Positions 38,768-56,052 of a DNA stretch of 64,000 bases are shown here, piece after piece; the stretch's first letter is position 1, and each line of letters starts with the position of its first letter. This stretch comes from Chlorobiaceae bacterium. Lineage in GTDB: Bacteria > Bacteroidota > Chlorobiia > Chlorobiales > Chlorobiaceae. Made by a program: the position numbers and the translations under genes. The DNA lies in NCBI GenBank assembly GCA_013334225.1, contig JAAXXY010000002.1, positions 2,084-66,083 on the forward strand. Reading direction: 5' to 3'. The notes under the pieces are model-generated. The model did no database searches. It was not told the DNA's origin and was given only the letters and a program-made list of their open reading frames with translations.

Positions 38768-39283
38768 ATGACAATCAAAGCAAGAAAGAATACCAGGGGA
38801 CTGATTGCAGCGGCTCTCTTTTGCCTGAGCATGTACAGCAATGCATTTGCGCTCAATGCGGGAAGTCCGGCACCTGATTTTGAACTGCCGGGACCGAAAG
38901 GGGCCGTCAAACTTTCAAGTACGTCAGGTTCGGTGGTTTATCTCGATTTCTGGGCATCATGGTGCGGGCCGTGCAGGCAGTCGTTTCCCTGGATGAACTC
39001 GATTCAGGAGAAATACCGCTCACAGGGGCTTAAGGTGATAGGAGTGAATCTCGATTCTAAAAATGAAGACGTGCAGAAATTTCTCGCTCAGCTTCCGGCA
39101 CAATTCACGGTAGCCTTCGATGCGAAAGGGGCAACTCCCCAGATCTACGGTGTCAAGGGAATGCCGACCAGTTTTCTTATCGGAAGGGATGGCAGGATTA
39201 TCTCACAGCATTCAGGTTTTAAAGAGAGTGACCGTGAAACCATCGAACAACAGATCAAGACGGCTCTGGAGGCAAAGAAATGA
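38768..39283 (+). CDS. tlpA: TlpA-like thioredoxin-fold protein
   Basis: A 171-residue periplasmic protein with a signal peptide (LIAAALFCLSMYSNAFA) and the active-site CxxC in FWASWCGPCRQSFPW near residue 73, in a thioredoxin fold of about 140 residues (GVKGMPTSFLIGRDGRI holds the cis-Pro). It is the first gene of module copy 1; its stop overlaps the next start (ATGA). It should pass reducing power from the nearby DsbD to a periplasmic client. Complete here; only a 3' fragment remains in copy 2. Confidence 0.93.
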   Translation: MTIKARKNTRGLIAAALFCLSMYSNAFALNAGSPAPDFELPGPKGAVKLSSTSGSVVYLDFWASWCGPCRQSFPWMNSIQEKYRSQGLKVIGVNLDSKNEDVQKFLAQLPAQFTVAFDAKGATPQIYGVKGMPTSFLIGRDGRIISQHSGFKESDRETIEQQIKTALEAKK

Positions 39284-39510
39284 AAAAACATGTTTTGCTC
39301 AATCCTCTGCATGCAATCCTGTTGCTGATCATACTTGCTTTATCAGGCTGTTCGACAGTTCAGCCATGGGAAAAGGGAACGCTGGCCCGGCCGGAAATGA
39401 CCTTCGAGGGTGATCCGCTCGATACGAAATACACTGAGCATATCTACAGCAGTAAAGAGGGGGCATCCGGTGGAGCTGGTGTAGGTGGCGGCGGCTGCGG
39501 TTGCAATTAA
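39280..39510 (+). CDS. DUF4266 lipoprotein with CGC tail, copy 1
   Basis: A 76-residue lipoprotein: the lipobox LALSGC (Cys23) follows a hydrophobic leader, then TVQPWEKGTLARPEMTF, and the chain ends in a Gly-rich stretch with the last residues GGGGCGCN. The Cys-Gly-Cys tail is shared with copy 2 and is the most striking feature; it could bind a metal, be oxidised by the thiol-disulfide partners, or be modified. The start overlaps the tlpA stop. The domain is of unknown function, here next to a DUF3570 barrel. About 90% identical to copy 2. Confidence 0.85.
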   Translation: MKKHVLLNPLHAILLLIILALSGCSTVQPWEKGTLARPEMTFEGDPLDTKYTEHIYSSKEGASGGAGVGGGGCGCN

Positions 39511-39537
39511 CGAAACATTAATTTTCATGATACTCCA

Positions 39538-40656
39538 ATGATATCGATCCCGATAAAAAAAGCGACAGCAACAGGAGCGGTTCTATTCGCTGCAGCACTT
39601 GCCCTGCCTTTCCAGAATTCCGCTTTTGCGGAAGCAGCTCCCGAGCGCAGCATCATTGCCTTCAAATATCTCAACTATCAGGACTACCAGCCCGATAAGG
39701 ACCGGATAGGTGTCAATGCATTCACGGTTATGGGTATGGTGCCGATAGCGGGTCAATGGTCAATAAGCACAACATACACCAATGATTCGGTCTCTGGAGC
39801 CTCTCCCCATCATCATTCAAGCGTTTCAGGCGCGTCGAAAATAAAGGAACACCGGCAGGCTGTCGATCTTGGCCTTACCCGTTATTTTCATCGGGGAAGT
39901 ATAACCGTGGGCGGCAGTTATTCAAGTGAAAACGATTATGTTTCACGCAGCTATTCGGCCCAGGGAAGCATAATGACAGAGGATAAAAATACAACCTTCA
40001 CGCTTGGGGGAAGTTATACTACGGATACGATCAGTCCTTCCAACGACAAGCCCAATTCATACGACAAGAAGGGGGTTGCCGCCCTTGCAGGTGTTACTCA
40101 GGTACTGACAAAGAATGATATCGTACAGTTGAATCTCGGCTATTCAAACGGCTGGGGTTATTTTTCGGATCCCTACAAGCTATATGATGAAAGGCCGGAC
40201 AACCGGAATACCAGGACAATCATGGCCCGTTGGAACCACCATTTCGACGGAAGTGACGGAACAGGCAGGATCTCGTACCGTTACTACACCGATTCATTCG
40301 GGATCGACGCCCATACGATCGGTCTTGAATATGTTCAGCCCCTTTCGAATGGCTGGACGGTGACGCCTTCGGCGAGATACCATTCACAGACGGCGGCATA
40401 CTTCTATCAGCCCGATATGCCTCCTCCCGGGCCGCCGCCAATCCCGCCGATTTCACTTGACCAGCGTCTCTCGGCTTTCGGAGCACTGACACTCGGTATC
40501 AAAGTTGAAAAACAGGTTGCGAAGGATTGGCTGTTCGATGTCAAATACGATTACTATCAGCAGCGTCCTGAATGGTGTCTGACGGGCAAGGGTGATAAAG
40601 GTCTGGATCCGTTCTTCTTCAGAAGCATTCAGGTCGGTGTTTCAAAGAAAATATAG
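39538..40656 (+). CDS. DUF3570 outer-membrane barrel with flavinylation motif, copy 1
   Basis: A 372-residue exported protein with a signal peptide (cleavage near AFAEA) and alternating beta strands typical of an outer-membrane barrel. Residues 83-89 read DSVSGAS and 94-100 read SSVSGAS; the first fits the ApbE target pattern D-x-x-(S/T)-G-A-(S/T), where FMN is joined to the last Ser or Thr. A Pro- and Gly-rich loop (PPPGPPPIPP) lies near residue 300. The second copy has the same motifs at the same place. There is no apbE beside this copy, so modification would rely on the other locus. Function unknown. Confidence 0.82.
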   Translation: MISIPIKKATATGAVLFAAALALPFQNSAFAEAAPERSIIAFKYLNYQDYQPDKDRIGVNAFTVMGMVPIAGQWSISTTYTNDSVSGASPHHHSSVSGASKIKEHRQAVDLGLTRYFHRGSITVGGSYSSENDYVSRSYSAQGSIMTEDKNTTFTLGGSYTTDTISPSNDKPNSYDKKGVAALAGVTQVLTKNDIVQLNLGYSNGWGYFSDPYKLYDERPDNRNTRTIMARWNHHFDGSDGTGRISYRYYTDSFGIDAHTIGLEYVQPLSNGWTVTPSARYHSQTAAYFYQPDMPPPGPPPIPPISLDQRLSAFGALTLGIKVEKQVAKDWLFDVKYDYYQQRPEWCLTGKGDKGLDPFFFRSIQVGVSKKI

Positions 40657-40818
40657 CTGCTCCCCCGTGTAGCTATACACCGCCAAGCTCATTTCTTTCC
40701 ATGCCGCCGGGCTTGCCGAGAAGACCTTGCGTCATGGAAAGCTTACGGGATTAACCCGCTGGCAGTTCTTGTCCATTTTTTTTCGAACTGATGATAATAA
40801 ATAACAATAGCGATTAAA

Positions 40819-42687
40819 CACAGAAACTGAGCAGCCATGACAACCATGAGGGAGAAGAATATGTATTGCAGGGGAACGGTGATGACGATAACCGTAATGA
40901 TCATGCTTCTGCTGCTGCAATTCGGCAGCGCGTTCGGAGCGGACTTTCTCGATCCGGAACAGGCATTCAGGGTGAAGGCGGAACTGGGAGCGAACCGCTC
41001 TGTTACGCTGCACTGGGATATCGCCAAAGGGTACAAGCTCTACCGTGACCGGGTGAAGGTCAGTGTCGGGAAGGGCAGTGCGAAGTTGCAGGAGCCGGTA
41101 TTGCCGAAAGGCATCACGATAACGGACCCGTCAACGAATGAAAAATTCGAGATCTATCACGACCGTCTCGATGTCGCTGTTCCGGTGGCAAAAGCGGATG
41201 GCAGGTTCACCCTGAACGTCGAATATCAGGGGTGTGCGGAGGACGGGCTCTGCTACCCCCCGATAACGAAATCGTACGAGATCGATCCTGGCGTTCCTGG
41301 GGTGCTTGCCGCGGCAGGCGAACAGCAAACCGCTCCTGGCACGAGTGTTGCGGATGCGGCAAAAGCGGTCACTCCACCGGCAGCGGTATCGAGCGGTAAT
41401 ACAAATGTAAAAGGCGGGGGGGAAAACGATCTCTCCCTGGCGAAAGCGACGCTCGCGGGCGGGAGCCTCTGGAAAATCTCGATAGCGTTCCTGTTCTTCG
41501 GTCTGCTGCTGTCGTTCACCCCGTGTGTACTTCCGATGATCCCGATCCTCTCGTCGATCATCGTTGGCGAGGGTGAGGTCACCCGCAGGCGCAGTTTTCT
41601 GATGGCCGTAGCATACTGCCTCGGCATGTCGCTGGTCTATACGTCGCTTGGCGTCGCGGCTGGCCTTGCCGGAGAGGGGCTTTCGGGTGCCTTGCAGAAA
41701 CCCTGGGTGCTTGTGCTGTTTGCCCTGCTGCTCGTGCTGCTTTCGCTCTCGATGTTCGATGTCTACCAGCTGCAGATGCCTGCAGCGATCCAGAACCGGC
41801 TGAACCAGGCATCTGGAAAACAGAAGGGGGGCAAATTCATCGGAGTGTTCGTGATGGGTTCGCTGTCGGCTCTTATCGTAGGCCCCTGTGTGGCGGCGCC
41901 GCTTGCCGGGACGCTTGTCTATATCAGTCAGACGAAAGATGTGCTGATCGGCGGACTTGCCCTGTTTTCGATGGCGTTGGGTATGAGCGTTCCGCTTCTT
42001 CTTGTTGGACTTTCAGCGGGGAGCCTGCTTCCGAAAGCCGGAGGGTGGATGATCGGGGTGAAATATGTGTTCGGCCTGCTCCTGATAGCGGTAGCGGTCT
42101 GGATGGTGTCCCCTGTGCTGCCTGTGCAGGGCGTGATGCTGGTGTGGGGAGCATTTGCGATACTGTGCGCGGTATTTCTGAAAGTGTTCGAAAGCCATGC
42201 GGGCAAGTCCACGATCGGTCAGCGTTTCGGGAAGGCATTGGGACTGGTTCTGTTTGTGATCGGCATAGCGGAACTGGTTGGTGCGGCATCAGGGGGGAGC
42301 AATGCCCTGGAACCGCTCGGGCATCTGCAGGCGGGGAGAGGATCGGCCGGTGACAAGGCGCAGGGAGAGGGGATCGCGTTCAAAAGGATCAGCACCCCGG
42401 CAGAGCTCGACAAGGCGCTGCAGTCGGCTGACAGGCCGGTGATGCTGGACTTCTATGCGGACTGGTGTGTGGCGTGCAAGGAGATGGAGAAATTCACGCT
42501 GCATGATCCGAAGGTGAAGGCGGAGCTTGGCAAGCTGACGCTGCTGCAGGTCGATGTGACGTCGAACAGCGAAGATGCGCGGGCATTGATGAAACGGTTC
42601 GGGCTGTTCGGGCCCCCGGGCATCATATTCTTTGACAGGACAGGCAGGGAGATCCCTGACAGCAGGGTCATCGGCGTCATGGAGGCG
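40819..42687. repeat. Near-identical dsbD repeat, copy 1
   Basis: This 1869-base stretch matches 54142-56010 with a constant offset of 13,323 bases. I found two mismatches, at 42597 and 42657, both near the 3' end. It begins with CACAGAAACTGA, the last 12 bases (three codons plus stop) of apbE in the other copy, although apbE itself is absent here. Protein ends after the repeat differ but remain similar. Confidence 0.9.
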
Positions 42688-42735
42688 CCCCATTTTCTTA
42701 GCCATGTAGCAAAGACTTCGACCGGACAGATATAA
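40861..42735 (+). CDS. dsbD: Thiol:disulfide interchange protein DsbD, copy 1
   Basis: A 624-residue protein that carries electrons from cytoplasmic thioredoxin across the membrane to periplasmic thiol proteins. It has a signal peptide, an N-terminal domain with YQGCAEDGLCYPP (two redox Cys near residue 135), an eight-helix core with FTPCVLPMIP and VGPCVAAPLAG (the two membrane Cys), and a C-terminal thioredoxin-like domain with FYADWCVACKEME. The ATG at 40861 has GGGAG upstream; the ATG at 40837 is an alternative. It ends in a PHFLSHVAKTSTGQI tail that differs from copy 2. Confidence 0.93.
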   Translation: MYCRGTVMTITVMIMLLLLQFGSAFGADFLDPEQAFRVKAELGANRSVTLHWDIAKGYKLYRDRVKVSVGKGSAKLQEPVLPKGITITDPSTNEKFEIYHDRLDVAVPVAKADGRFTLNVEYQGCAEDGLCYPPITKSYEIDPGVPGVLAAAGEQQTAPGTSVADAAKAVTPPAAVSSGNTNVKGGGENDLSLAKATLAGGSLWKISIAFLFFGLLLSFTPCVLPMIPILSSIIVGEGEVTRRRSFLMAVAYCLGMSLVYTSLGVAAGLAGEGLSGALQKPWVLVLFALLLVLLSLSMFDVYQLQMPAAIQNRLNQASGKQKGGKFIGVFVMGSLSALIVGPCVAAPLAGTLVYISQTKDVLIGGLALFSMALGMSVPLLLVGLSAGSLLPKAGGWMIGVKYVFGLLLIAVAVWMVSPVLPVQGVMLVWGAFAILCAVFLKVFESHAGKSTIGQRFGKALGLVLFVIGIAELVGAASGGSNALEPLGHLQAGRGSAGDKAQGEGIAFKRISTPAELDKALQSADRPVMLDFYADWCVACKEMEKFTLHDPKVKAELGKLTLLQVDVTSNSEDARALMKRFGLFGPPGIIFFDRTGREIPDSRVIGVMEAPHFLSHVAKTSTGQI

Positions 42736-42767
42736 AGACAATCACTTAATGACAAGGAGAGAACATT

Positions 42768-45251
42768 ATGGCTACGTACAATTACACTGGCACAACCGGA
42801 GCGGATTCAGTCAGCTTGCTCAATTTCTACAACGACAAGCCTCCAGGCGGGGATGTCATCAATATCAATGGTCTTGACGGGAACGATACGTTTTACCTGA
42901 ACAGCAACGGTAAAACCTCTTACAATACACCATTTCAAAGCGCCGGGTTCACTGTTTCTCCGGTAAACGCGAGTGGTGTAATAGTTGTCACTGGTGCAAG
43001 TACCGGCGGAACAAAATTCACGTTCAATCTGACCAGTGTCGAAACACTGGTATTCGCTGACAAGACTGTAACCCTGTCGTATCTTTCAGCGGATACCATC
43101 GCTCCGACGGTGACCACCTTCAGTCCGGCCGATGCCGCGACCGGCATAGCTATAGGAAGCAATATCGTGCTGACGTTCAGCGAGGCTATCCAGAAAGGCA
43201 CAACCGGCACGATAACCATTCACAGCGGTTCTGCAACGGGAACGGTCGTTGAAAGTTATGCGGCCACGAATACAACGAACCTGACGGTTTCCGGCAATAC
43301 GCTGACAATCAATCCGACGGCCAATCTTGCAAATGGGACGCAGTATTTCGTGACGATCGATTCCGGAGCGGTCAAGGACCTTGCCGGCAACAATTATGCT
43401 GGCACGACAACGTATGACTTTACCACGCTACCTGATACCATCGCTCCGACAGTGAGCACCTTCAGTCCGGCCGATGCTGCGACCGGTGTAGCTATAGGAA
43501 GCAATATCGTGCTGACGTTCAGTGAAGCTATCCAGAAAGGCACAACCGGCACGATAACCATTCACAGCGGTTCTGCAACGGGAACGGTCGTTGAAAGTTA
43601 TGCGGCCACGAATACGACGAACCTGACGGTTTCCGGCAATACGCTTACAATCAACCCGACGGCCGATCTTGCATACGGGACGCAGTATTTCGTCACGATC
43701 GATCCGGGTGCGGTCAAGGACCTTGCCGGCAACAATTACACAGGCACGACGACCTATGACTTTACCACGGCGGCAGCGCCCGATACCACTGCTCCGACAG
43801 TGACCACCTACAGTCCGGCCGATGCCGCAACCGGCATAGCTATAGGAAGCAATATCGTGCTGACGTTCAGCGAGGCTATCCAGAAAGGCACAACCGGCAC
43901 GATAGCCATTCACAGCGGCTCTGCAGGCGGTACGGTCGTTGAAAGCTATGCGGCTGCGAATACTGCGAACCTTTCGGTGTCCGGCAATACGCTGACGATC
44001 AATCCGACGGCCGATCTTGCAAACGGGACGCAGTATTTCGTCACGATCGATCCGGGTGCGGTCAAGGATCTTGCAGGCAACAATTATGCAGGCACGACGA
44101 CCTATGACTTTACCACGCTACCTGATACCATCGCTCCGACAGTGAGCACCTTCAGTCCGGCCGATGCCGCAACCGGCGTAGCTATAGGAAGCAATATCGT
44201 GCTGACGTTCAGTGAAGCGATACAGCAGGGTACGACGGGGACGATAGCCATTCACAGCGGATCGGCAGGCGGTGCGGTTCTTGAAAGTTATGCGGCCACG
44301 AATACGTCGAACCTGTCGGTGTCCGGCAATACGCTGACGATCAACCCGACGGCCAGTCTTGCATACGGGACGCAGTATTTCGTCACGATCGATTCTGGTG
44401 CGGTCAAGGATCTTGCGGGCAACAACTATGCAGGTACCACGACATATGATTTTACTACGGCAGCAGCGCCCGATACCACCGCTCCGACAGTGACCACCTT
44501 CAGTCCGGCCGATGCCGCAACCGGCATAGCTATAGGAAGCAATATCGTGCTGACGTTCAGCGAGGCGATCCAGCAGGGCGCGACGGGGACGATAGCCATT
44601 CACAGCGGGTCGGCAGGCGGTGCGGTTCTTGAAAGCTATGCAGCCACGAACACGACGAACCTGTCTGTGTCCGGCAATACGCTGACGATCAACCCGACGT
44701 CCACTCTGGCATACGGGACGCAGTATTTCGTGACGATCGATTCGGGATCGATCAGGGATGTCGCGGGCAACAACTATGCAGGCACGACGACCTATGACTT
44801 TACCACGCTCCCAGACACCGCCCCCCCGACAGTGACGACCTTCAGTCCGTCCGATGCGGCGACCGGAATCGATGTCGGAAGCAATATCGTACTGACATTC
44901 AGTGAAGCGATACAGAAAGGAGCAGGCAAGATTGAAATCCACAGCGGTTCAGCATCCGGAACCCTTCTTGAAAGCTATGATGCTGCTTCCAACACAGCAA
45001 ACCTTTCGGTATCCGGCAATACACTGACGATCAATCCGACGGCCAATCTTGCGAACAGCACCCATTACTTTGTAGTCCTGGGCAACGCAAGCATCAAGGA
45101 CCTTGCCGGGAACAGTTATGCCGGTGCATCCGACTATGATTTCACCACGGCCGATCCTTACGCGGCAAGCGGTTCATCCGGCGGCGGAAGCTCAGTAGCC
45201 ATACTTGCAGGAGTTGGAGCACTGGGATTGCTCGCTTTTGTGGTTTTATAA
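42768..45251 (+). CDS. Giant Ig-like repeat protein, probable type I secretion substrate
   Basis: An 827-residue acidic, Thr/Ser/Asn-rich protein without a signal peptide. The first 100 residues contain a Ca-binding-like turn (LDGNDTFY) and a beta domain. Six Ig-like (Big_5/SbsA-type) repeats of about 114 residues follow, each starting APTVTTFSPADAATGIAIG-like and holding SNIVLTFSEAI and AGNNYAGTTTYDFTT. The end is a Gly/Ser linker (SGSSGGGSS) plus 18 hydrophobic residues. The T1SS genes follow directly, so it should be exported by that system to the cell surface as an adhesin or layer protein; inference. Confidence 0.85.
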   Translation: MATYNYTGTTGADSVSLLNFYNDKPPGGDVININGLDGNDTFYLNSNGKTSYNTPFQSAGFTVSPVNASGVIVVTGASTGGTKFTFNLTSVETLVFADKTVTLSYLSADTIAPTVTTFSPADAATGIAIGSNIVLTFSEAIQKGTTGTITIHSGSATGTVVESYAATNTTNLTVSGNTLTINPTANLANGTQYFVTIDSGAVKDLAGNNYAGTTTYDFTTLPDTIAPTVSTFSPADAATGVAIGSNIVLTFSEAIQKGTTGTITIHSGSATGTVVESYAATNTTNLTVSGNTLTINPTADLAYGTQYFVTIDPGAVKDLAGNNYTGTTTYDFTTAAAPDTTAPTVTTYSPADAATGIAIGSNIVLTFSEAIQKGTTGTIAIHSGSAGGTVVESYAAANTANLSVSGNTLTINPTADLANGTQYFVTIDPGAVKDLAGNNYAGTTTYDFTTLPDTIAPTVSTFSPADAATGVAIGSNIVLTFSEAIQQGTTGTIAIHSGSAGGAVLESYAATNTSNLSVSGNTLTINPTASLAYGTQYFVTIDSGAVKDLAGNNYAGTTTYDFTTAAAPDTTAPTVTTFSPADAATGIAIGSNIVLTFSEAIQQGATGTIAIHSGSAGGAVLESYAATNTTNLSVSGNTLTINPTSTLAYGTQYFVTIDSGSIRDVAGNNYAGTTTYDFTTLPDTAPPTVTTFSPSDAATGIDVGSNIVLTFSEAIQKGAGKIEIHSGSASGTLLESYDAASNTANLSVSGNTLTINPTANLANSTHYFVVLGNASIKDLAGNSYAGASDYDFTTADPYAASGSSGGGSSVAILAGVGALGLLAFVVL
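43092..45155. repeat. Six tandem Ig-like repeat units
   Basis: Units start at 43092, 43434, 43782, 44124, 44472 and 44814, so the spacing alternates 342, 348, 342, 348, 342 bases. The alternation comes from linkers LPDTIAP and AAAPDTTAP, showing that a two-unit block of 690 bases was copied. DNA identity between units is high. Confidence 0.9.
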
Positions 45252-45258
45252 CATGCCC

Positions 45259-45363: not shown

Positions 45364-47067
45364 ATGACAACTGGTAAAATGAACTTTCCGCTGCGCGGCA
45401 AAGTTGCCGCTCTTTATCCCTATTTCAGGCATGTATGTGTCTTCAGTGTTGTTGTAAACGTGCTTGTTCTGGTTCCAAGTGCCTATATGATGCAGGTTTA
45501 TGAGCGCGTTACCAGTTCCCGGAGTTTTATGACGCTTCTGATGCTGACCATTCTCGTTATCGGCCTTTATGTCATTCTCGAAGCACTGGAGTGGGTTCGG
45601 AGGCAGGTGATGCTGCATGCCGGAGCAGAGCTTGAAAGAAATGTTCGCGAACAGGTGTTTTCCGTTGTTTTCACGGCAAGACTCCAGGGACACTCTGCAA
45701 CCGGGCTTCAGCCGCTGCATGACCTGAAGATCATCCGCGAGTTTTTTCCTTCTCATGCCATGCAGGCGATCATCGATGCCCCACTCGCTCTGCTCGTTCT
45801 CGGGCTGATTTTCCTGATGAACCCGTTCCTCGGCTGGTTTGCGGTAGCTGGAGCACTTGCACAATTCGGGATTGGATTTATTAACGAGCGCAACATCCGG
45901 GGACCGCTCATGGAAGCGCACCGGAATTCGACGGCAGCCCGCAACTATGCGGAAAGTGCAATACGAAAATCGCAGGTGATAGAATCGATGGGTATGCACG
46001 AAGATATTCATGGTCGATGGATGAATTTCCAGCAGGAGTTTCTTCTGCATCAGGCAAAGGCTTCGGATCTTGCCGGAACAAATGCCGTCGTATCGAAGCT
46101 GGTGCAAAGCCTGACGAGCTCGCTTCTGCTCGGACTTGGCTGCTGGCTGACACTCCGGGGCGAGCTGCACGGTGCCGGCATGATCGTCGCATCCATTCTT
46201 GGCGGGCGAGTTCTTTCTCCTCTCGTTCAGATAATCGGAAACTGGCGCCAGGTGGAAATTGCCTGTGAGGCGTTCAATCGTCTTGAAGGTCTTATGACCG
46301 CATATCCTTCGAAGAGCAAGGGGATGCCTCTGCCGGCACCTGATGGGGCGTTGTCCGTCGAAAGTTTGTTTACAGGAGCCCCGGGAAGTTCAACGTATAT
46401 CATCAGAGGTGTTTCTTTCAGGCTTCCGGCAGGATCATCACTTGCCATCGTAGGGCCTTCCGCTTCAGGTAAAACCGTTCTTTCACGGTTGCTTGCAGGA
46501 ATCTGGCCGGCGATGCAAGGCAAGGTCCGGCTGGACGGAAATGATATCTACCGATGTGACAGGGAGGAGCTCGGGCAGTATATCGGCTATCTGCCGCAGA
46601 ATGTCGAGCTGCTTGAAGGAACCATCTCGGAAAATATTTCCCGATTCGGAGAGCCTGATTCGAAAAAAGTCCGTGAAGCATGCAGGATGGCCGGGCTGGA
46701 AGTTCTGATAGATCAGTTTCCCCAGGGTTATGAAACAATCATAGGCGATGACGGTTCATTTCTGTCAGGGGGTGAGCGCCAGCGTGTAGCCCTGGCTCGG
46801 GCGGTTTACGGTATGCCGAAGCTTGTCGTGCTCGACGAGCCTGATTCAAGTCTCGACGAACAGGGGATTGCGGCCCTCATCAGCACCGTAAAACGTCTGA
46901 AAGCCGCCGGTTCGACGGTTATCGTCATTACTCACAGAGTCAACATTCTCGTTGCGATAGAGCATCTGCTCGTTCTTGTCGATGGGCAGGTTCAGCAGTT
47001 CGGCTCCTGCAGGGAGGTGCTTGCCATGCTGCAGTCTCCACCTGTGATCCTCCAGTCGAAGAATTAA
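45364..47067 (+). CDS. Type I secretion ABC transporter, PrtD-like, first
   Basis: A 567-residue half-transporter: about six membrane helices in the first 320 residues, then an ATPase with Walker A GPSASGKT near residue 363, the signature LSGGERQRVALARA near 468 and Walker B VVLDEPDSSLDEQG near 488. There is no N-terminal peptidase domain. In type I systems it forms the energised inner-membrane part. It is followed 25 bases later by a second similar gene, so the two may form a heterodimer. Its substrate is probably the upstream repeat protein. Confidence 0.93.
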   Translation: MTTGKMNFPLRGKVAALYPYFRHVCVFSVVVNVLVLVPSAYMMQVYERVTSSRSFMTLLMLTILVIGLYVILEALEWVRRQVMLHAGAELERNVREQVFSVVFTARLQGHSATGLQPLHDLKIIREFFPSHAMQAIIDAPLALLVLGLIFLMNPFLGWFAVAGALAQFGIGFINERNIRGPLMEAHRNSTAARNYAESAIRKSQVIESMGMHEDIHGRWMNFQQEFLLHQAKASDLAGTNAVVSKLVQSLTSSLLLGLGCWLTLRGELHGAGMIVASILGGRVLSPLVQIIGNWRQVEIACEAFNRLEGLMTAYPSKSKGMPLPAPDGALSVESLFTGAPGSSTYIIRGVSFRLPAGSSLAIVGPSASGKTVLSRLLAGIWPAMQGKVRLDGNDIYRCDREELGQYIGYLPQNVELLEGTISENISRFGEPDSKKVREACRMAGLEVLIDQFPQGYETIIGDDGSFLSGGERQRVALARAVYGMPKLVVLDEPDSSLDEQGIAALISTVKRLKAAGSTVIVITHRVNILVAIEHLLVLVDGQVQQFGSCREVLAMLQSPPVILQSKN

Positions 47068-48832: not shown

Positions 48833-50014
48833 ATGCCCATTCTTGAAGCTTTAGCGGGAAGGATTCCCCTTTCTGCCGTAAAACAAACCACGGACAAAAG
48901 AAAACGTTACGCTGATACAGAAAGTCCCGTCCGGCTTGGTATTCTGATCCTGCTTGTCGGATTCGGCGGATTCCTTCTCTGGTCGGCTTTCGCTCCACTC
49001 GACGAAGGTGTTCCCTGTCAGGGTATCGTAAATCTGGCGACAAAAAGAAAAGTGGTTGAAAATCTGCGCGGAGGCAGCCTCGAAAGAATCTTTGTAAAAG
49101 AGGGGCAGATGGTTGAAAAGGACGAACTGCTTATGAAAATTGACAACGGGATGGCAAAAGCCCGTTATGATGAGGTTCATCAGCATTATCTCGGTATGAG
49201 GGCGACAGCGGACCGGCTGCTTGCCGAAATACGCGGGGCAGGCTCGATTTCGTTTCATAAGGATCTTGTGAGCGATTCCGACCGGCTGCTTGCCGAACAG
49301 CATATGGAAAGTCAGAGACAGCTCTTTCTTTCCCGCCGCATGACTCTCGGAATTCTTCAGGAGCAGCTTGCGGGTATTTCATCGCTTGTAAAAGAGGGGT
49401 ATGCACCTCTGAACCAGAAAAGAGAGATGGAACTGAAAATTGCCGAATTCAAATCTGCAACGGCAACCCAGCTTGCCCAGGTTCAGCTTGAAGTCGAGGC
49501 CGATGCTGAAAAAACGAAAACTCTTGCAAAAGAGCTCGCCGATACCGAGGTGCGTTCACCGGTATCAGGCCAGGTTGTAGGTCTGCAGGTGCAGACCGTC
49601 GGGGCAGTGATTCAGCCCGGGCAGAAAATTATGGATATCGTACCGAACCATGAAGGACTTCTTGTCGATGTGAAAGTTTCCCCTCACCTGATCGACAGCG
49701 TTCGCAAGGGAGACGAGGTTGATATCGGCTTTTTTTCTTTCGTCCGTACTCCTCAGCTTGTTGTGAAGGGAAAAGTTGAATCGGTATCGAAAGACATTGT
49801 TTCCGATCCTCAGGTAAACCCTGGAGTGCCTGGAATGTCCTATTACCTTGCCCGTATTTCAGTAACGCCTGATGGTCTCAAGTCTCTTGGAAACCGTCAG
49901 ATGCAGCCCGGAATGCCGGTTCAGGTCATTGTCAAAACAGGTGAACGATCACTTCTGACCTATCTGATCGATCCGCTGATCAGGAAGGTCATGGTTTCGA
50001 TGAAGGAGGAATAA
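48833..50014 (+). CDS. HlyD-family membrane fusion protein
   Basis: A 393-residue periplasmic adaptor with one N-terminal membrane helix (about residues 31-50, LGILILLVGFGGFLLWSAFA) and the barrel-sandwich halves around a coiled-coil hairpin (residues about 90-215). The second half begins DTEVRSPVSGQVVGLQVQ, typical of the lipoyl-like part, and ends in a beta barrel. It links the ABC pair to the outer-membrane TolC-like channel. Length is short of HlyD (about 478) but normal for this PrtE-like group. Confidence 0.93.
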   Translation: MPILEALAGRIPLSAVKQTTDKRKRYADTESPVRLGILILLVGFGGFLLWSAFAPLDEGVPCQGIVNLATKRKVVENLRGGSLERIFVKEGQMVEKDELLMKIDNGMAKARYDEVHQHYLGMRATADRLLAEIRGAGSISFHKDLVSDSDRLLAEQHMESQRQLFLSRRMTLGILQEQLAGISSLVKEGYAPLNQKREMELKIAEFKSATATQLAQVQLEVEADAEKTKTLAKELADTEVRSPVSGQVVGLQVQTVGAVIQPGQKIMDIVPNHEGLLVDVKVSPHLIDSVRKGDEVDIGFFSFVRTPQLVVKGKVESVSKDIVSDPQVNPGVPGMSYYLARISVTPDGLKSLGNRQMQPGMPVQVIVKTGERSLLTYLIDPLIRKVMVSMKEE

Positions 50015-50022
50015 GATTTCGC

Positions 50023-51387
50023 ATGTGTTTACAAAGAAATATGATAAGAGTGTGTGTCATGAAAATACTGGTAGCTGTATCGTTTCTCCTGTTTTTTACA
50101 TTTTCGCAGGATGTTTCCGCCGTGTCCCTCGATCTGTCCGGGGCATACAGAAAGGCATTGGACTATGATGCGCGGGTCCGTATTGCTCATGCCGATAATG
50201 ATGCTGACAAAGAGGAGATTGCCAAGGCGCGTGCATTATTGAGGCCCAATATCCGGGGAAATGTCGGTCGGGGACGGAACGTCACGCAATACGGCTATCA
50301 TGGGGTTTTATATACACCCGACTATTACAATACATCAAATACCGGCGTCACTCTCCGTCAGTCATTGCTGAATATTCCGAATTTTATCGGTTATACCCAG
50401 GCGAAGTCGATTGTGGCAAAAAGCGATATCGACATGCAGAATGAAGAGGCTGGTCTGATTGTGAGAATAACCGATGCCTACTGCAATGTATTGTATGCCG
50501 AGGAAAACCTGGCTGTTATTCAGGAACAGGTGAAAGCATCAAAGGAACAGCTACAGCAGGCAAAGCACCGGTATGATAAAGGCTTTGGTACCATTACCGA
50601 GATCAGTGAGACCCAGGCGGTTTATAATATGGCACTTGCAGAGTGTCTCGATATGGTCAACAACCTTGAATTCAGTCGCCGTACGCTGGAAAATTTAATC
50701 GGTGAATATCCTGAAAATCTCTGCAAACTCAATCCTGAAAAACTGGTTGTAAAAAATCCGTTGTCAGATCAGGTACAATCCTGGATAAGCCTTGCGATGT
50801 CCGGTAACGGGGAGATATCTTCGGCGCGCCAGAATATGGAGATTGCCCGTAAGGAGATAGAAAAACAGAAAGCGATACGTTATCCGACGCTTGATCTCGT
50901 GGCTGGTAGAAATTTGACGGAAAGTGAAAACAACTATTCGATCGGTGCGACCTACAATACCTATTCGCTCAGTCTGCAGATGAGCGTCCCGATTTATTCA
51001 GGGGGATTTGTGAGTTCTTCCGTGCGTCAGGCAAAGGCCCGCTGGATAAAGGCAGGGGAGGAACTCAGATTGCAGGAACGCGGAGTGCAATCGGATGTTC
51101 GGAAATATTACAACAATGTTACAGGCACTATCGCCCAGATACAGGCATACGAGCAGGCGGTAAAGTCACAGGAAACCGCTTTGACCGGAACAAGAAAAGG
51201 ATTTGAAGCGGGATTGCGCAGCAATATGGATGTGCTCGATGCCCAGCAGAAGCTCTTTTCTGCCAGGCGCAATCTTGCCAAGTCCCGTTATCAGTATATT
51301 ATCAATCTGCTCATGCTCAGGCAAAGCGCAGGTGTTTTATCAGCTCGCGATATTGAAGAAGTCAACAACTGGCTCGGCAAAGTTTGA
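50023..51387 (+). CDS. tolC: TolC-family outer-membrane channel protein
   Basis: An about 454-residue protein with an N-terminal signal region (MKILVAVSFLLFFTFSQ) whose true start is uncertain; AAGGAGG lies 13 bases before the first ATG at 50023, and internal ATGs at 50041 and 50059 are alternatives. The mature chain has the repeated helical TolC halves (EENLAVIQEQVKASKEQL and KYYNNVTGTIAQIQAYEQA). It completes the type I secretion set: ABC pair, adaptor and channel. Genes of module copy 2 follow after a non-coding gap. Confidence 0.92.
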   Translation: MCLQRNMIRVCVMKILVAVSFLLFFTFSQDVSAVSLDLSGAYRKALDYDARVRIAHADNDADKEEIAKARALLRPNIRGNVGRGRNVTQYGYHGVLYTPDYYNTSNTGVTLRQSLLNIPNFIGYTQAKSIVAKSDIDMQNEEAGLIVRITDAYCNVLYAEENLAVIQEQVKASKEQLQQAKHRYDKGFGTITEISETQAVYNMALAECLDMVNNLEFSRRTLENLIGEYPENLCKLNPEKLVVKNPLSDQVQSWISLAMSGNGEISSARQNMEIARKEIEKQKAIRYPTLDLVAGRNLTESENNYSIGATYNTYSLSLQMSVPIYSGGFVSSSVRQAKARWIKAGEELRLQERGVQSDVRKYYNNVTGTIAQIQAYEQAVKSQETALTGTRKGFEAGLRSNMDVLDAQQKLFSARRNLAKSRYQYIINLLMLRQSAGVLSARDIEEVNNWLGKV

Positions 51388-51420
51388 ACAAACCTGGTGA
51401 TTTTGTTTTTTGGAATCAGA

Positions 51421-51435
51421 AATAACAATTGTTAA
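51421..51435 (-). promoter_or_regulatory. Candidate operator upstream of module copy 2
   Basis: On the minus strand this is TTAACAATTGTTATT, the same 15-mer as at 38675-38689 but inverted; the flanking bases CAGTAT are also shared in that orientation. Confidence 0.5.
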
Positions 51436-51661
51436 AATACTGAGTGCTTTTTGCCGCATAGCATCCCTCATTCATGTTGAACGATCGTTCTTTACCGATA
51501 TATGTATGATTTTCCAGGGTGATCCCTTGATTGCCGGCTGGATTTGTGCTTTCCCTCAAATCGCTCTCAACGATTATTTACAGACTTTCAGAAGGCAGGA
51601 TGATGCCTGTATGAAAGGGCGACGGCATTTGGCAAACAGGTGCGTATGTATTTGCAGTTTT

Positions 51662-51775
51662 CAGTTTTCTTATCGGAAGGGATGGCAGGATTATCTCACA
51701 GCATTCAGGTTTTAAAGAGAGTGACCGTGAAACCCTCGAACAACAGATCAAGACGGCTCTGGAGGCAAAGAAATG
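51662..51775 (+). pseudogene. tlpA: 3' remnant of tlpA in module copy 2
   Basis: About 114 bases that match the end of the copy-1 tlpA (39169-39282) almost exactly (one mismatch seen, CATC versus CCTC) and stop at the same codon. The upstream two thirds, including the CxxC active site, are gone, so no redox protein can be made. The fragment leads straight into the second DUF4266 gene. The near identity means the homology is recent even though this copy is broken. Confidence 0.9.
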
Positions 51776-52012
51776 AATAAACATGTATTACGTGTTTTGC
51801 TCAATACTCTGCATGCAATCCAGTTGCTGATCATGCTTGCTTTATCTGGCTGTTTGACAGTTCAGCCCTGGGAAAAGGGCACCCTCGCCCGGCCGGAAAT
51901 GACCTTTGAGGGTGATCCGCTCGATACGAAATCCACCGAACATATTTACAGCAGCAAGGAAGCTGCATCCGGCGGTGCAGGAGTGGGAGGGGGCGGATGC
52001 GGATGTAATTAA
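51773..52012 (+). CDS. DUF4266 lipoprotein with CGC tail, copy 2
   Basis: A 79-residue lipoprotein with lipobox LALSGC and the same C-terminal GGGGCGCN as copy 1, about 90% identical apart from three extra residues in the leader. The Cys-Gly-Cys end is conserved, so it is probably functional. It sits before a DUF3570 barrel and apbE, keeping the gene order of copy 1. Confidence 0.85.
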   Translation: MNKHVLRVLLNTLHAIQLLIMLALSGCLTVQPWEKGTLARPEMTFEGDPLDTKSTEHIYSSKEAASGGAGVGGGGCGCN

Positions 52013-52033
52013 TCGAATGTTAACACCCGACAC

Positions 52034-53233
52034 ATGATGACAATACCGGCATTGAAAGCGAAATCCGCTCTTTTCGGCACGGCGATTCTCGGTGTTGCAA
52101 TGGCATTGCCGACGATAAATTCTGCCTGTGCCGACAGTGCTCCTGAAAATGGAATTGTCAGCCTGAAATATCTCAATTACAGGGACTGGCAGACAGGCGA
52201 CACTCCCCTGACTGCCGGAATGACGAGAGAGAGAATAGGAGTTCAGGCCCTGTCGCTCATGTGTATGGTCCCTGTAGCAGGAGAGTGGTCGCTGAGTGTG
52301 AACCTGCTTGATGATACCGTTACCGGAGCTTCTCCGGCTTATCATTCGGCTGGTTTCCCATCGGCTCTATCGGGTGCTTCGGCCCTCGATCTCCGGCATG
52401 CGGGAGATGCGCAGCTTACCCGCTATTTTTCGAGAGGTTCCGTTACAGGCGGTCTCAGTTATTCAAAGGAGAATGATTACATTTCCCGTGGTATCTCGCT
52501 TCAGGGAAGCTGGTCGACCGAAGACAGGAATACAACCTGTATGATCGGTGCAAGCGTCAATGACGACAGTATCGACCTGAGGGGTGACAATGTCGTTGCA
52601 TCGAAAAAACAGAAAGATCCTGAAAAGAAGATGGCCTATGCTGCTCTTTTCGGTCTGACAAAAGTGCTTGCGAAAGCCGATATCGTTCAGTTCAATTTAG
52701 GGTACACCATTGGAAACGGTTATTTTACCGATCCTTTCAAGGATCCGGACATCCGGCCGCGAGGACGTAACAGTGCAACATTCATGACCAGGTGTAATCA
52801 CCATTTCGACAGCACTGACGGAACCATGCACCTTTCGTACCGGTACTATCAGGATACCTGGGGTATCAGAGCCCACACGCTTGGCGCGGAATATGTTCAG
52901 CCGCTCCCGAAAGGGTGGACGATTACACCACAGATGAGGTTCTATTCGCAAAGCGAAGCTGATTTTTATATCGCTTCCGGTCCGGACCCCACTAAACCGG
53001 TTCCGCCACCGGCAGGCGCCGTTTATTATTCGGAGGACCAGCGGCTCTCCTCATTCGGAGCGATAAGTTTCGGTGTCAAGGTCAGCAAGCAGTTGTCCGC
53101 CCACTGGCTGATGGATGTAAAGTATGAGAGGTATGAACAACGGGGGGAATGGAGCCTATTTGGTAAAGGTGATCCGGGAGTGGCTTCATTCAATGCGAAA
53201 GACGTTCAACTGGGTTTGTCGAGGACGTTTTAA
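52034..53233 (+). CDS. DUF3570 outer-membrane barrel with flavinylation motif, copy 2
   Basis: A 399-residue exported barrel protein, well diverged from copy 1 in its strands but alike in plan: signal peptide (cleavage near ACADS), motif 1 DTVTGAS at residues 94-100 and motif 2 SALSGAS at 110-116. Motif 1 fits the D-x-x-(S/T)-G-A-(S/T) site modified by ApbE and lies in the same relative place as in copy 1 (52313-52333). The apbE gene follows 32 bases downstream. A Pro-rich loop lies near residue 320. Its function is unknown; flavin carriage is inference. Confidence 0.82.
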   Translation: MMTIPALKAKSALFGTAILGVAMALPTINSACADSAPENGIVSLKYLNYRDWQTGDTPLTAGMTRERIGVQALSLMCMVPVAGEWSLSVNLLDDTVTGASPAYHSAGFPSALSGASALDLRHAGDAQLTRYFSRGSVTGGLSYSKENDYISRGISLQGSWSTEDRNTTCMIGASVNDDSIDLRGDNVVASKKQKDPEKKMAYAALFGLTKVLAKADIVQFNLGYTIGNGYFTDPFKDPDIRPRGRNSATFMTRCNHHFDSTDGTMHLSYRYYQDTWGIRAHTLGAEYVQPLPKGWTITPQMRFYSQSEADFYIASGPDPTKPVPPPAGAVYYSEDQRLSSFGAISFGVKVSKQLSAHWLMDVKYERYEQRGEWSLFGKGDPGVASFNAKDVQLGLSRTF

Positions 53234-53265
53234 GTGACGGCCATGTCTGTAATCAGCAAGAGATT

Positions 53266-54153
53266 ATGAATATTTTACGTTTCGGATTTGAAGCCATGTC
53301 AAGCGGTTGCGAGATAGTCATGGCGTATGAAAATAAAAAGAGCGGTGAGGCAATTGCAGAACTTGCTGTTCATGAAATAGCAAGAATCGAGATGAAATAC
53401 TCCAGATATCTTCCCCAGAGTATTGTATCGAAGATCAATGCCGCGGCAGGCATTGAAAGAGTGGAGTGCGATGAAGAGACGTTAACGCTTTTGCGTTATG
53501 CCGATGCATTTTACAGGAGCAGCGGAGGTTTGTTCGATATCACTTCCGGTGTTCTGCGCAAGGCATGGGATTTTAAAAAGGCATCAGTGCCCGAAGCGGA
53601 TGTGCTTGCACCGTTCCTTGGACTTGTAGGATGGGAATATGTGGAACGTCAGGATAAAACCGTTTATCTTCCTGTGACCGGCATGCAGGTGGATTTCGGA
53701 GGATTCGGAAAAGAGTATGCTGCGGATTGCAGTGCGGCTGTTCTGTTGAACCATGGTGTCCGCTCGGGTTATGTCAACCTTGGAGGAGATATACGTGTTG
53801 TCGGGCCAAGACCGGACGGGAGCCCGTGGGTGATCGGTATCCAGGACCCGCGGAACGAGAAACAAACGATCGCCTCCATTCCTCTCTACTCCGGTGCGCT
53901 TGCCACCAGCGGTGATTATGAACGGTATTTTGAATCGGATGGCCAACGCTACTGCCACATCCTCAATCCGGGGACGGGTATGCCGGTAAACTTCTGGCAA
54001 TCGGTCACCATACTTGCGGCAACGACCTTGTTGGCGGGAAGCCGGTCGACGATTGCGATGCTGAAGGAGGAGGATGGGCTTCATTATCTTTCTCAAACGG
54101 GAATGAAATATCTTGCGGTTGACAGCAAGGGAGCAATTCATCACAGAAACTGA
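53266..54153 (+). CDS. apbE: FAD:protein FMN transferase ApbE
   Basis: A 295-residue enzyme that joins FMN from FAD to a Ser or Thr of target proteins. The fold is recognised by FGFEAMSSGCEIVMA at the start, VDFGGFGKEYAAD near residue 145, SGDYERYF, and HILNPGTGMP (the metal/FAD-binding motif) near residue 225. No signal peptide or lipobox precedes the fold, and no upstream in-frame start would add one. Most ApbE are exported, so this one may act in the cytoplasm before export of its target. Its neighbour DUF3570 has a fitting target motif. Confidence 0.93.
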   Translation: MNILRFGFEAMSSGCEIVMAYENKKSGEAIAELAVHEIARIEMKYSRYLPQSIVSKINAAAGIERVECDEETLTLLRYADAFYRSSGGLFDITSGVLRKAWDFKKASVPEADVLAPFLGLVGWEYVERQDKTVYLPVTGMQVDFGGFGKEYAADCSAAVLLNHGVRSGYVNLGGDIRVVGPRPDGSPWVIGIQDPRNEKQTIASIPLYSGALATSGDYERYFESDGQRYCHILNPGTGMPVNFWQSVTILAATTLLAGSRSTIAMLKEEDGLHYLSQTGMKYLAVDSKGAIHHRN

Positions 54154-56010
54154 GCAGCCATGACAACCATGAGGGAGAAGAATATGTATTGCAGGGGAAC
54201 GGTGATGACGATAACCGTAATGATCATGCTTCTGCTGCTGCAATTCGGCAGCGCGTTCGGAGCGGACTTTCTCGATCCGGAACAGGCATTCAGGGTGAAG
54301 GCGGAACTGGGAGCGAACCGCTCTGTTACGCTGCACTGGGATATCGCCAAAGGGTACAAGCTCTACCGTGACCGGGTGAAGGTCAGTGTCGGGAAGGGCA
54401 GTGCGAAGTTGCAGGAGCCGGTATTGCCGAAAGGCATCACGATAACGGACCCGTCAACGAATGAAAAATTCGAGATCTATCACGACCGTCTCGATGTCGC
54501 TGTTCCGGTGGCAAAAGCGGATGGCAGGTTCACCCTGAACGTCGAATATCAGGGGTGTGCGGAGGACGGGCTCTGCTACCCCCCGATAACGAAATCGTAC
54601 GAGATCGATCCTGGCGTTCCTGGGGTGCTTGCCGCGGCAGGCGAACAGCAAACCGCTCCTGGCACGAGTGTTGCGGATGCGGCAAAAGCGGTCACTCCAC
54701 CGGCAGCGGTATCGAGCGGTAATACAAATGTAAAAGGCGGGGGGGAAAACGATCTCTCCCTGGCGAAAGCGACGCTCGCGGGCGGGAGCCTCTGGAAAAT
54801 CTCGATAGCGTTCCTGTTCTTCGGTCTGCTGCTGTCGTTCACCCCGTGTGTACTTCCGATGATCCCGATCCTCTCGTCGATCATCGTTGGCGAGGGTGAG
54901 GTCACCCGCAGGCGCAGTTTTCTGATGGCCGTAGCATACTGCCTCGGCATGTCGCTGGTCTATACGTCGCTTGGCGTCGCGGCTGGCCTTGCCGGAGAGG
55001 GGCTTTCGGGTGCCTTGCAGAAACCCTGGGTGCTTGTGCTGTTTGCCCTGCTGCTCGTGCTGCTTTCGCTCTCGATGTTCGATGTCTACCAGCTGCAGAT
55101 GCCTGCAGCGATCCAGAACCGGCTGAACCAGGCATCTGGAAAACAGAAGGGGGGCAAATTCATCGGAGTGTTCGTGATGGGTTCGCTGTCGGCTCTTATC
55201 GTAGGCCCCTGTGTGGCGGCGCCGCTTGCCGGGACGCTTGTCTATATCAGTCAGACGAAAGATGTGCTGATCGGCGGACTTGCCCTGTTTTCGATGGCGT
55301 TGGGTATGAGCGTTCCGCTTCTTCTTGTTGGACTTTCAGCGGGGAGCCTGCTTCCGAAAGCCGGAGGGTGGATGATCGGGGTGAAATATGTGTTCGGCCT
55401 GCTCCTGATAGCGGTAGCGGTCTGGATGGTGTCCCCTGTGCTGCCTGTGCAGGGCGTGATGCTGGTGTGGGGAGCATTTGCGATACTGTGCGCGGTATTT
55501 CTGAAAGTGTTCGAAAGCCATGCGGGCAAGTCCACGATCGGTCAGCGTTTCGGGAAGGCATTGGGACTGGTTCTGTTTGTGATCGGCATAGCGGAACTGG
55601 TTGGTGCGGCATCAGGGGGGAGCAATGCCCTGGAACCGCTCGGGCATCTGCAGGCGGGGAGAGGATCGGCCGGTGACAAGGCGCAGGGAGAGGGGATCGC
55701 GTTCAAAAGGATCAGCACCCCGGCAGAGCTCGACAAGGCGCTGCAGTCGGCTGACAGGCCGGTGATGCTGGACTTCTATGCGGACTGGTGTGTGGCGTGC
55801 AAGGAGATGGAGAAATTCACGCTGCATGATCCGAAGGTGAAGGCGGAGCTTGGCAAGCTGACGCTGCTGCAGGTCGATGTGACGTCGAACAGCGAAGATG
55901 CGCGGGCATTGATGAAACGTTTCGGGCTGTTCGGGCCCCCGGGCATCATATTCTTTGACAGGACAGGCAGGGAGATCCCCGACAGCAGGGTCATCGGCGT
56001 CATGGAGGCG
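54142..56010. repeat. Near-identical dsbD repeat, copy 2
   Basis: Same 1869-base unit as 40819-42687. Here its first 12 bases are the natural 3' end of apbE, which makes this the more likely donor context. The tract ends inside dsbD (at GGAGGCG), after which the two genes diverge. Confidence 0.9.
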
Positions 56011-56052
56011 GCGGCATTTTACGATCATATCAAGAAACTGGTGGTAAATTGA
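54184..56052 (+). CDS. dsbD: Thiol:disulfide interchange protein DsbD, copy 2
   Basis: A 622-residue protein identical to copy 1 up to VMEA near the end, where this copy finishes AAAFYDHIKKLVVN. The redox Cys pairs in the N-terminal domain, the membrane core (FTPCVLPMIP) and the C-terminal domain (WCVACKEME) are all intact, so it should be active. The ATG at 54184 has GGGAG upstream. It follows apbE by 30 bases, giving the module a full DUF4266-barrel-apbE-dsbD order. It should supply reducing power to the periplasm. Confidence 0.93.
   Translation: MYCRGTVMTITVMIMLLLLQFGSAFGADFLDPEQAFRVKAELGANRSVTLHWDIAKGYKLYRDRVKVSVGKGSAKLQEPVLPKGITITDPSTNEKFEIYHDRLDVAVPVAKADGRFTLNVEYQGCAEDGLCYPPITKSYEIDPGVPGVLAAAGEQQTAPGTSVADAAKAVTPPAAVSSGNTNVKGGGENDLSLAKATLAGGSLWKISIAFLFFGLLLSFTPCVLPMIPILSSIIVGEGEVTRRRSFLMAVAYCLGMSLVYTSLGVAAGLAGEGLSGALQKPWVLVLFALLLVLLSLSMFDVYQLQMPAAIQNRLNQASGKQKGGKFIGVFVMGSLSALIVGPCVAAPLAGTLVYISQTKDVLIGGLALFSMALGMSVPLLLVGLSAGSLLPKAGGWMIGVKYVFGLLLIAVAVWMVSPVLPVQGVMLVWGAFAILCAVFLKVFESHAGKSTIGQRFGKALGLVLFVIGIAELVGAASGGSNALEPLGHLQAGRGSAGDKAQGEGIAFKRISTPAELDKALQSADRPVMLDFYADWCVACKEMEKFTLHDPKVKAELGKLTLLQVDVTSNSEDARALMKRFGLFGPPGIIFFDRTGREIPDSRVIGVMEAAAFYDHIKKLVVN

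What the first reader, a model, noticed from the sequence alone, without database searches (positions are those of the whole stretch)
38768..56052. Two complementary, partly broken copies of a tlpA-DUF4266-DUF3570-apbE-dsbD module
Copy 1 has tlpA but no apbE; copy 2 has apbE but only the last 114 bases of tlpA. Each has its own DUF4266, DUF3570 and dsbD. Reciprocal loss suggests that both modules share one TlpA and one ApbE, so the two loci act as a single system.
Basis: seen in the sequence. Interest (0 to 1): 0.7.

Follow-up and report, generated by a model that had tools for sequence, protein, structure and literature searches.

The report
Paired flavin electron-transfer modules in Chlorobium
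This green sulfur bacterium carries two versions of a gene set predicted to move electrons from the cell interior to flavin-bearing barrels in its outer membrane; the two sets share one flavin-attaching enzyme and one thioredoxin, which turns out to be common in the group, and the set belongs to a larger, co-regulated cluster of surface electron-transfer genes.

Summary
Copy 1 has tlpA-DUF4266-DUF3570-dsbD and no apbE. Copy 2 has the last 114 nt of tlpA, then DUF4266-DUF3570-apbE-dsbD. The whole genome (about 3.05 Mb, 99.97% complete) holds one ApbE and one cognate TlpA, so sharing in trans is required if both copies work. Both DUF3570s keep two flavinylation motifs, and the copy-2 genes are under purifying selection.

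"Reciprocal loss" is the wrong history. The two DUF3570s belong to old, separate clades. Two relatives also have an apbE-less copy-1-type module, and the closest relative has copy 2 intact at the same place. The tlpA truncation is a local recombination scar, and dsbD1 was overwritten by dsbD2 through gene conversion. Sharing is the group norm: 20 of 23 Chlorobia genomes with two or more DUF3570s have one ApbE.

The biochemistry matches the DsbD/ApbE/DUF3570 flavinylation system of Méheust et al. 2021. New here: DUF3570 models as a 16-strand outer-membrane barrel with both flavin sites on an outer loop; its ApbE lacks a signal peptide; a linked RTX/Ig-like surface protein carries a conserved flavinylation motif; and the module follows a Cyc2-like/multihaem cytochrome cluster in many relatives, with a shared operator.

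The parts
22740..24059 (+). Cyc2-like monohaem cytochrome-porin; first gene of the electron-transfer cluster that lies directly upstream of the module in many relatives
   Evidence: AXPXFAR[Q/K][T/Y] motif, single CYTCH, 439 aa, C-terminal ..QFAF; PXL motif not met
24499..30932 (+). Rieske, ferredoxin-like, cytochrome b (ExtP-like), ExtQ-like, 8-CXXCH cytochrome, monohaem cytochrome and cupredoxin-like genes of the same cluster
21927..22202 (.). three operator-like sites (1 mismatch to TAACAATTGTTA) upstream of the cyc2-like gene (21927, 22089, 22191)
   Evidence: same element upstream of 8 of 9 cyc2-like genes in relatives
38676..38687 (.). exact palindrome TAACAATTGTTA, 92 bp before tlpA of copy 1
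38768..39283 (+). tlpA (copy 1), the only full-length cognate thioredoxin; WCGPC active site
39280..39510 (+). DUF4266 lipoprotein (copy 1), lipobox LSGC, C-terminal GGGGCGCN
39538..40656 (+). DUF3570 clade a; 16-strand outer-membrane barrel model; SGAS at aa 86-89 and 97-100
40837..42735 (+). dsbD1; core overwritten by gene conversion from dsbD2 (tract about 40809-42696), 3' tail of copy-1 type
42768..45251 (+). Big_5 repeat protein with N-terminal RTX-like domain carrying TGAS (aa 75-78, nt 42990-43001); candidate new ApbE substrate
45364..47067 (+). type I secretion ABC transporter, PrtD family (first)
47093..48799 (+). type I secretion ABC transporter, PrtD family (second)
48833..50014 (+). 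HlyD-type adaptor
50023..51387 (+). TolC-type outer membrane channel
51385..51660 (+). native upstream region of the copy-2 module, 86% identical to the region before intact tlpA in Chlorobium sp. L304-S-6D
51423..51434 (.). exact palindrome TAACAATTGTTA upstream of copy 2
51662..51775 (+). tlpA remnant (last 38 codons, copy-1 type)
51773..52012 (+). DUF4266 lipoprotein (copy 2), copy-1-type sequence, C-terminal GGGGCGCN
52034..53233 (+). DUF3570 clade b; TGAS aa 97-100 and SGAS aa 113-116
53266..54153 (+). apbE, the only one in the genome; no signal peptide
54160..56052 (+). dsbD2 (ancestral at this place; 93% to Chlorobium sp. L304-S-6D)

Best explanation
Two paralogous DUF3570 flavin electron-transfer modules of different age sit in tandem and share one ApbE and one TlpA. 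Likely path: cytosolic thioredoxin reduces DsbD in the inner membrane, DsbD reduces periplasmic TlpA, TlpA reduces the Gly-rich CxC tail of the DUF4266 lipoprotein, and DUF4266 passes electrons to one of two FMN-bearing DUF3570 outer-membrane barrels. The FMNs sit on an outer-surface loop, where they can exchange electrons with iron, sulfur or surface proteins. One ApbE without a signal peptide, so probably cytosolic, flavinylates every substrate; a second apbE beside copy 1 is therefore unnecessary. Soluble TlpA can likewise serve both loci. The present layout arose by recombination between the modules (an a-type tlpA end and DUF4266 joined to the b module; dsbD1 converted by dsbD2), not by matched loss of a recent duplicate. 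Shown here: gene content, single apbE and tlpA, separate ages, conversion, shared operator, motif conservation. Modelled: barrel fold and loop side. Inferred: localisation, electron path, acceptor, sharing in trans.
For: Single ApbE, single cognate TlpA and no FMN_bind protein in the genome. DUF3570 flavinylation by a neighbouring ApbE at two SGAS motifs was shown for C. luteolum (PMC8238504); both window DUF3570s keep both motifs. Tree: DUF3570a groups with the apbE-less modules of W9_091 and LaPlata bin-1930 (98/93), DUF3570b with L304-S-6D (100/100). dsbD1 core is 99.6% identical to dsbD2, but its tail matches a-type dsbDs (FLSHVAKTSTGQI versus FLARISRNSSGNI). 20/23 multi-DUF3570 genomes have one ApbE and 17/23 one TlpA. 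AlphaFold2: 16 strands, pLDDT 84.8, pTM 0.81; top PDB matches are outer-membrane porins. Both SGAS lie in the strand 3-4 loop, on the long-loop side. ApbE lacks a signal peptide in every locus examined. Exact palindrome upstream of both modules; five sites in the window versus 0.12 expected. Purifying selection.
Against: No expression, flavinylation or redox data exist for this genome. Other thioredoxin-fold proteins could replace TlpA for either module. One relative (G056) has DUF3570-apbE-dsbD with no TlpA or DUF4266 found, so TlpA may not be essential. The route from TlpA through DUF4266 to flavin is inferred. The genome is a draft with 6.92% contamination, and a 1.8-kb near-perfect repeat is a classic site of assembly error. 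A Sec-exported, already flavinylated barrel would be unusual.
Confidence: 0.68

Rival explanations
1. One reading: one recent duplication of a five-gene module, then reciprocal loss of tlpA and apbE, leaving two halves that depend on each other.
For: The layout looks complementary; dsbD is 99.6% and the tlpA tail 98% identical.
Against: DUF3570s are 53% identical and in separate old clades. apbE-less a-type modules occur in two other lineages. The dsbD identity ends in an a-type tail, the mark of gene conversion. The b-module upstream region is native.
Confidence: 0.07
2. The modules are functionally separate: copy 1 uses its own TlpA, while copy 2 uses another thioredoxin-fold protein or takes electrons directly from DsbD2; only ApbE is shared.
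For: G056 has DUF3570-apbE-dsbD without TlpA or DUF4266; other thioredoxin-like genes exist in the genome; each module keeps its own dsbD.
Against: DUF4266, which sits next to tlpA, is kept in copy 2; identical operators suggest joint expression.
Confidence: 0.22
3. The tandem layout is partly an assembly artefact: a mis-join at the dsbD repeat of a multi-strain draft.
For: 6.92% contamination, 101 contigs, a 1.8-kb near-perfect repeat.
Against: Copy-specific SNPs near the tract ends and distinct flanks on both sides. The a-module, Big_5, b-module order is also implied by the contig ends in W9_091 and LaPlata. Flanks are syntenic with L304-S-6D. No N runs.
Confidence: 0.06

Closest known systems
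DsbD-type flavinylation gene clusters (ApbE / DUF3570 / DUF4266 / thioredoxin-like / DsbD), Méheust et al. 2021 eLife, PMC8238504
   Same: Same five families; DUF3570 of Chlorobium luteolum shown there to be flavinylated by its neighbouring ApbE at two [S/T]GA[S/T] motifs; DUF4266 noted for its CxC end.
   Different: Two paralogous modules share one ApbE and one TlpA; DUF3570 modelled here as an outer-membrane barrel with surface flavin sites; ApbE without signal peptide; linked Big_5/RTX-like protein with a motif; link and shared operator with a Cyc2-like cytochrome cluster.
Cytosolic ApbE of Klebsiella pneumoniae (flavinylates soluble fumarate reductase; reviewed in PMC12052999)
   Same: ApbE without a signal peptide.
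   Different: There the substrate stays in the cytosol; here the presumed substrates are exported.
Cyc2 fused cytochrome-porin (PMC8406198)
   Same: AXPXFAR[Q/K][T/Y] motif, one CXXCH, about 440 aa, outer-membrane type C terminus.
   Different: The PXL motif is PAR/PNR/PIR/PTR; part of a Rieske/cytochrome b/multihaem cluster next to the DUF3570 module; iron oxidation untested.
Mtr/Pio-type porin-cytochrome conduits
   Same: The idea of an outer-membrane barrel carrying electrons across.
   Different: Predicted 16-strand barrel with covalent flavins instead of a 26-strand barrel with decahaem cytochrome.

Membership tests
DsbD-type flavinylation cluster (PMC8238504) | ApbE (PF02424) in the cluster | tested here: met
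   Copy 2 only; the single ApbE of the genome
DsbD-type flavinylation cluster (PMC8238504) | DUF3570 (PF12094) with two [S/T]GA[S/T] motifs | tested here: met
   Both copies
DsbD-type flavinylation cluster (PMC8238504) | DsbD (PF02683) and thioredoxin-like protein | tested here: met
   Two DsbD, one full TlpA; copy 2 alone lacks TlpA
DsbD-type flavinylation cluster (PMC8238504) | DUF4266 with C-terminal CxC | tested here: met
   Both end GGGGCGCN
DsbD-type flavinylation cluster (PMC8238504) | Actual covalent FMN on DUF3570 | not testable with these tools
   Shown for C. luteolum by the authors, not for this genome
Outer-membrane beta-barrel (DUF3570) | Even-stranded closed barrel, short turns on one side and long loops on the other, outer-membrane matches | tested here: met
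   16 strands, pLDDT 84.8; best PDB matches OmpG, FadL and other outer-membrane porins; prediction only
Extracytosolic ApbE | N-terminal signal peptide or lipobox | tested here: not met
   ApbE domain starts within a few residues of the only usable start, here and in all Chlorobia loci examined; none in the three Pseudomonadota loci either
ApbE substrate (Big_5/RTX-like protein) | [S/T]GA[S/T] core of the flavinylation site | tested here: met
   19 of 23 cluster-linked homologues; 0 of 7 weak matches checked
ApbE substrate (Big_5/RTX-like protein) | Aspartate three residues before the S/TGA (D-x-x-[S/T]GA[S/T]) | tested here: not met
   Hydrophobic residue instead; reported as non-essential (PMC12052999)
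Type I secretion substrate (Big_5 protein) | No Sec signal, RTX-like domain, adjacent T1SS | tested here: met
Type I secretion substrate (Big_5 protein) | C-terminal RTX nonapeptide array | tested here: not met
   Window protein ends in a hydrophobic tail; relatives L083/L072 do have RTX repeats
Cyc2 | AXPXFAR[Q/K][T/Y] before a single CXXCH, at least 400 aa | tested here: met
Cyc2 | PXL motif after CXXCH | tested here: not met
   PAR here; PNR, PIR or PTR in relatives; hence called Cyc2-like only

The most novel reading that the evidence does not exclude
Chlorobia have a flavin-based surface electron conduit: a cytosolic ApbE attaches FMN to DUF3570 outer-membrane barrels and to a type I-secreted RTX/Ig-like surface protein. 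DsbD, TlpA and the CxC lipoprotein DUF4266 feed electrons to these flavins, and the set is co-regulated with a Cyc2-like cytochrome-porin and a multihaem cytochrome complex.
Probability: 0.3. Interest if true: 0.78.

Novelty: new variant of a known kind. Interest (0 to 1): 0.52.

Why it matters
How green sulfur bacteria move electrons across the outer membrane to and from solids (iron, extracellular sulfur) is poorly explained. The evidence here points to a flavin-carrying outer-membrane barrel fed by thiol chemistry and encoded beside a Cyc2-like cytochrome-porin cluster, and it gives specific, testable parts: one apbE, two DUF3570 paralogues, one TlpA, a candidate new flavinylated surface protein and a shared operator. 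It also shows that an apparently broken duplicate can be the normal multi-substrate, single-modifier state of a system.

Tried and rejected
Reciprocal loss after recent duplication: rejected by the DUF3570 tree, the a-type dsbD tail and relatives. A fossil apbE in copy 1: the ~10 nt of apbE sequence before dsbD1 are the edge of the conversion tract; no other apbE similarity was found in the gap. Selenocysteine in Chlorobaculum dsbD (in-frame TGA flagged): in the loci checked these are end or upstream stops. An FMN_bind substrate for the single ApbE: none in the genome. T1SS as a normal part of the module: related PrtD-type T1SS genes occur in 23 of 28 genomes, elsewhere in the genome in those compared, so the position here looks like an insertion relative to L304-S-6D. 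Filing the cytochrome-porin as true Cyc2: not done because PXL is not met. DUF4266 itself as an ApbE substrate: no [S/T]GA[S/T] motif in it.
Full report
OBSERVATION. Copy 1 is tlpA (38768-39283), DUF4266, DUF3570, dsbD (to 42735), with no apbE. Copy 2 starts with exactly the last 114 nt of tlpA (51662-51775) and continues DUF4266, DUF3570, apbE, dsbD (to 56052). Between them lie a Big_5-repeat protein and a type I secretion system of two PrtD-type ABC transporters, HlyD and TolC. The genome is a Chlorobium-type draft (3,045,020 bp, 101 contigs, 99.97% complete, 6.92% contamination). It contains one ApbE, one full cognate TlpA, two DUF4266, two DUF3570, two DsbD of this type and no FMN_bind protein. 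Both modules can therefore work only by sharing ApbE, and probably TlpA.

HISTORY. The copies are a mosaic. The DUF3570s are 53% identical and fall in two old clades. DUF3570a groups with the modules of W9_091 and LaPlata bin-1930 that likewise lack apbE (98/93), and DUF3570b with Chlorobium sp. L304-S-6D (100/100). L304-S-6D has an intact tlpA-DUF4266-DUF3570b-apbE-dsbD between the same neighbours (cation efflux and TPR genes upstream; methyltransferase, DPBB and Kup downstream). Relative to it, the window has about 14 kb more (TauE, copy 1, Big_5, T1SS) inserted before the module. The native upstream region of the copy-2 module survives (51385-51660, 86% identical to L304-S-6D) and runs straight into the tlpA end of copy-1 type. 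dsbD1 is 99.6% identical to dsbD2 over 1889 nt, yet its last residues match dsbDs of other apbE-less modules rather than dsbD2. That is the mark of gene conversion. So copy 1 never needed its own apbE, and the tlpA truncation is a separate recombination scar.

HOW COMMON IS IT. In 43 Chlorobia genomes with hits (from 61 sampled), 23 have two or more DUF3570 genes. Of these, 20 have exactly one ApbE and 17 exactly one TlpA. In all, 19 genomes have a DUF3570 cluster without apbE, and four (this one, G020, G042, G051) have complementary tlpA-only and apbE-only clusters. Sharing one ApbE among several DUF3570s is the normal state of the group.

MECHANISM. Méheust et al. 2021 (PMC8238504) described this gene set and showed that C. 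luteolum DUF3570 is flavinylated by its neighbouring ApbE at two [S/T]GA[S/T] sites. Both window DUF3570s keep both sites, and copy-2 genes show dN/dS 0.13-0.19. AlphaFold2 gives DUF3570a a 16-strand barrel (pLDDT 84.8, pTM 0.81), and the top PDB matches are outer-membrane porins. Loops after odd-numbered strands total 93 residues, turns after even-numbered strands 26. By the usual rule the former face outward, and both SGAS motifs lie in the strand 3-4 loop on that side. DUF4266 is a lipoprotein with an invariant Gly-rich CGCN end. The likely path is thioredoxin, DsbD, TlpA, DUF4266, DUF3570-FMN, outside acceptor. Every step of the path is inferred.

ApbE WITHOUT SIGNAL PEPTIDE. In the window, in all Chlorobia loci examined and in three Pseudomonadota loci, the ApbE domain starts almost at the start codon, with no room for a signal peptide. 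A 2025 review calls ApbE typically periplasmic and names Klebsiella as a cytosolic case with a soluble substrate (PMC12052999). Flavinylation before export would be unusual and would explain why one copy can serve several loci.

A CANDIDATE NEW SUBSTRATE. The Big_5 protein between the copies has an N-terminal RTX-like domain (PDB match to an RTX-like domain) and no Sec signal. In many Chlorobia it sits between DUF3570a and apbE. It carries [S/T]GAS at a beta-hairpin in 13 of 13 aligned domains. In a search of 53 genomes, 19 of the 23 strong, cluster-linked matches that were read keep the motif (the four exceptions are SGSS, SGTS, AGAT, SGSS), and 0 of 7 weak matches that were read do. The aspartate of the full consensus is missing, but it is reported as non-essential. 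This is a lead, not a result.

WIDER CLUSTER AND CO-REGULATION. In ten relatives the module lies directly downstream of a conserved cluster: Cyc2-like cytochrome-porin (not recovered in one of them, L052), Rieske, cytochrome b, ExtQ-like, 8-haem cytochrome, monohaem cytochrome, cupredoxin-like. The window has this cluster at 22740-30932. The palindrome TAACAATTGTTA occurs exactly upstream of both modules, with three 1-mismatch sites before the cyc2-like gene: five in 64 kb against 0.12 expected. It is found within one mismatch upstream of 12 of 40 tlpA genes (0.12 expected from Markov shuffles; 2.2% of control windows) and of 8 of 9 cyc2-like genes in relatives. Joint regulation of the two modules and the cytochrome cluster is therefore likely. 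The cytochrome-porin has the Cyc2 motif AXPXFAR[Q/K][T/Y] but not PXL, so it is called Cyc2-like only.

LIMITS. Everything is comparative or predicted. The genome is a contaminated draft and the dsbD repeat should be checked by long reads. The direction of electron flow and the acceptor are unknown. The genome sample is one per species. G-handle genomes and named loci partly overlap (for example G002 = L304-S-6D, G060 = LaPlata bin-1930).

VERDICT. Observation right; functional idea of sharing plausible and ordinary for the group; evolutionary story wrong. A new variant of a known flavinylation system, of moderate interest on its face and higher interest for the surface-conduit reading.

Noticed in passing
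window 42990-43001 (Big_5 protein 42768-45251): Conserved [S/T]GA[S/T] motif in the N-terminal RTX-like domain of the Big_5 protein that is linked to DUF3570 modules; possible new ApbE substrate.
   Followed up: partly
window 53266-54153: DUF3570-associated ApbE lacks a signal peptide in all Chlorobia loci examined and in three Pseudomonadota loci, although its substrate is exported.
   Followed up: partly
window 22740-30932: Cyc2-like cytochrome-porin followed by Rieske, cytochrome b, 8-haem cytochrome and cupredoxin-like genes; directly upstream of the DUF3570 module in ten relatives.
   Followed up: partly
window 21927, 22089, 22191, 38676, 51423: Palindrome TAACAATTGTTA (exact or 1 mismatch) upstream of the cyc2-like gene and both modules; regulator unknown.
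   Followed up: partly
window 32709-33728 (-): 12-CXXCH multihaem cytochrome with weak similarity to DmsE/MtrC-type decahaem families, next to Nramp and CDF metal transporters.
   Followed up: no
window 43092-45113: Six tandem Big_5 repeats with alternating 342/348-nt spacing, the first five 86-94% identical, suggesting recent repeat expansion.
   Followed up: no
G050 contig C45:39391-40488 (L093): Open frame of 832 aa that spans two DUF3570 domains (possible double-barrel fusion).
   Followed up: no
Big_5 homologues L044, L047-L050, L053, L055-L057, L060 and the window protein: Shared hydrophobic C-terminal tail (such as GVGGLGVLAWALFF) without following basic residues; anchor or secretion signal unknown.
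   Followed up: no
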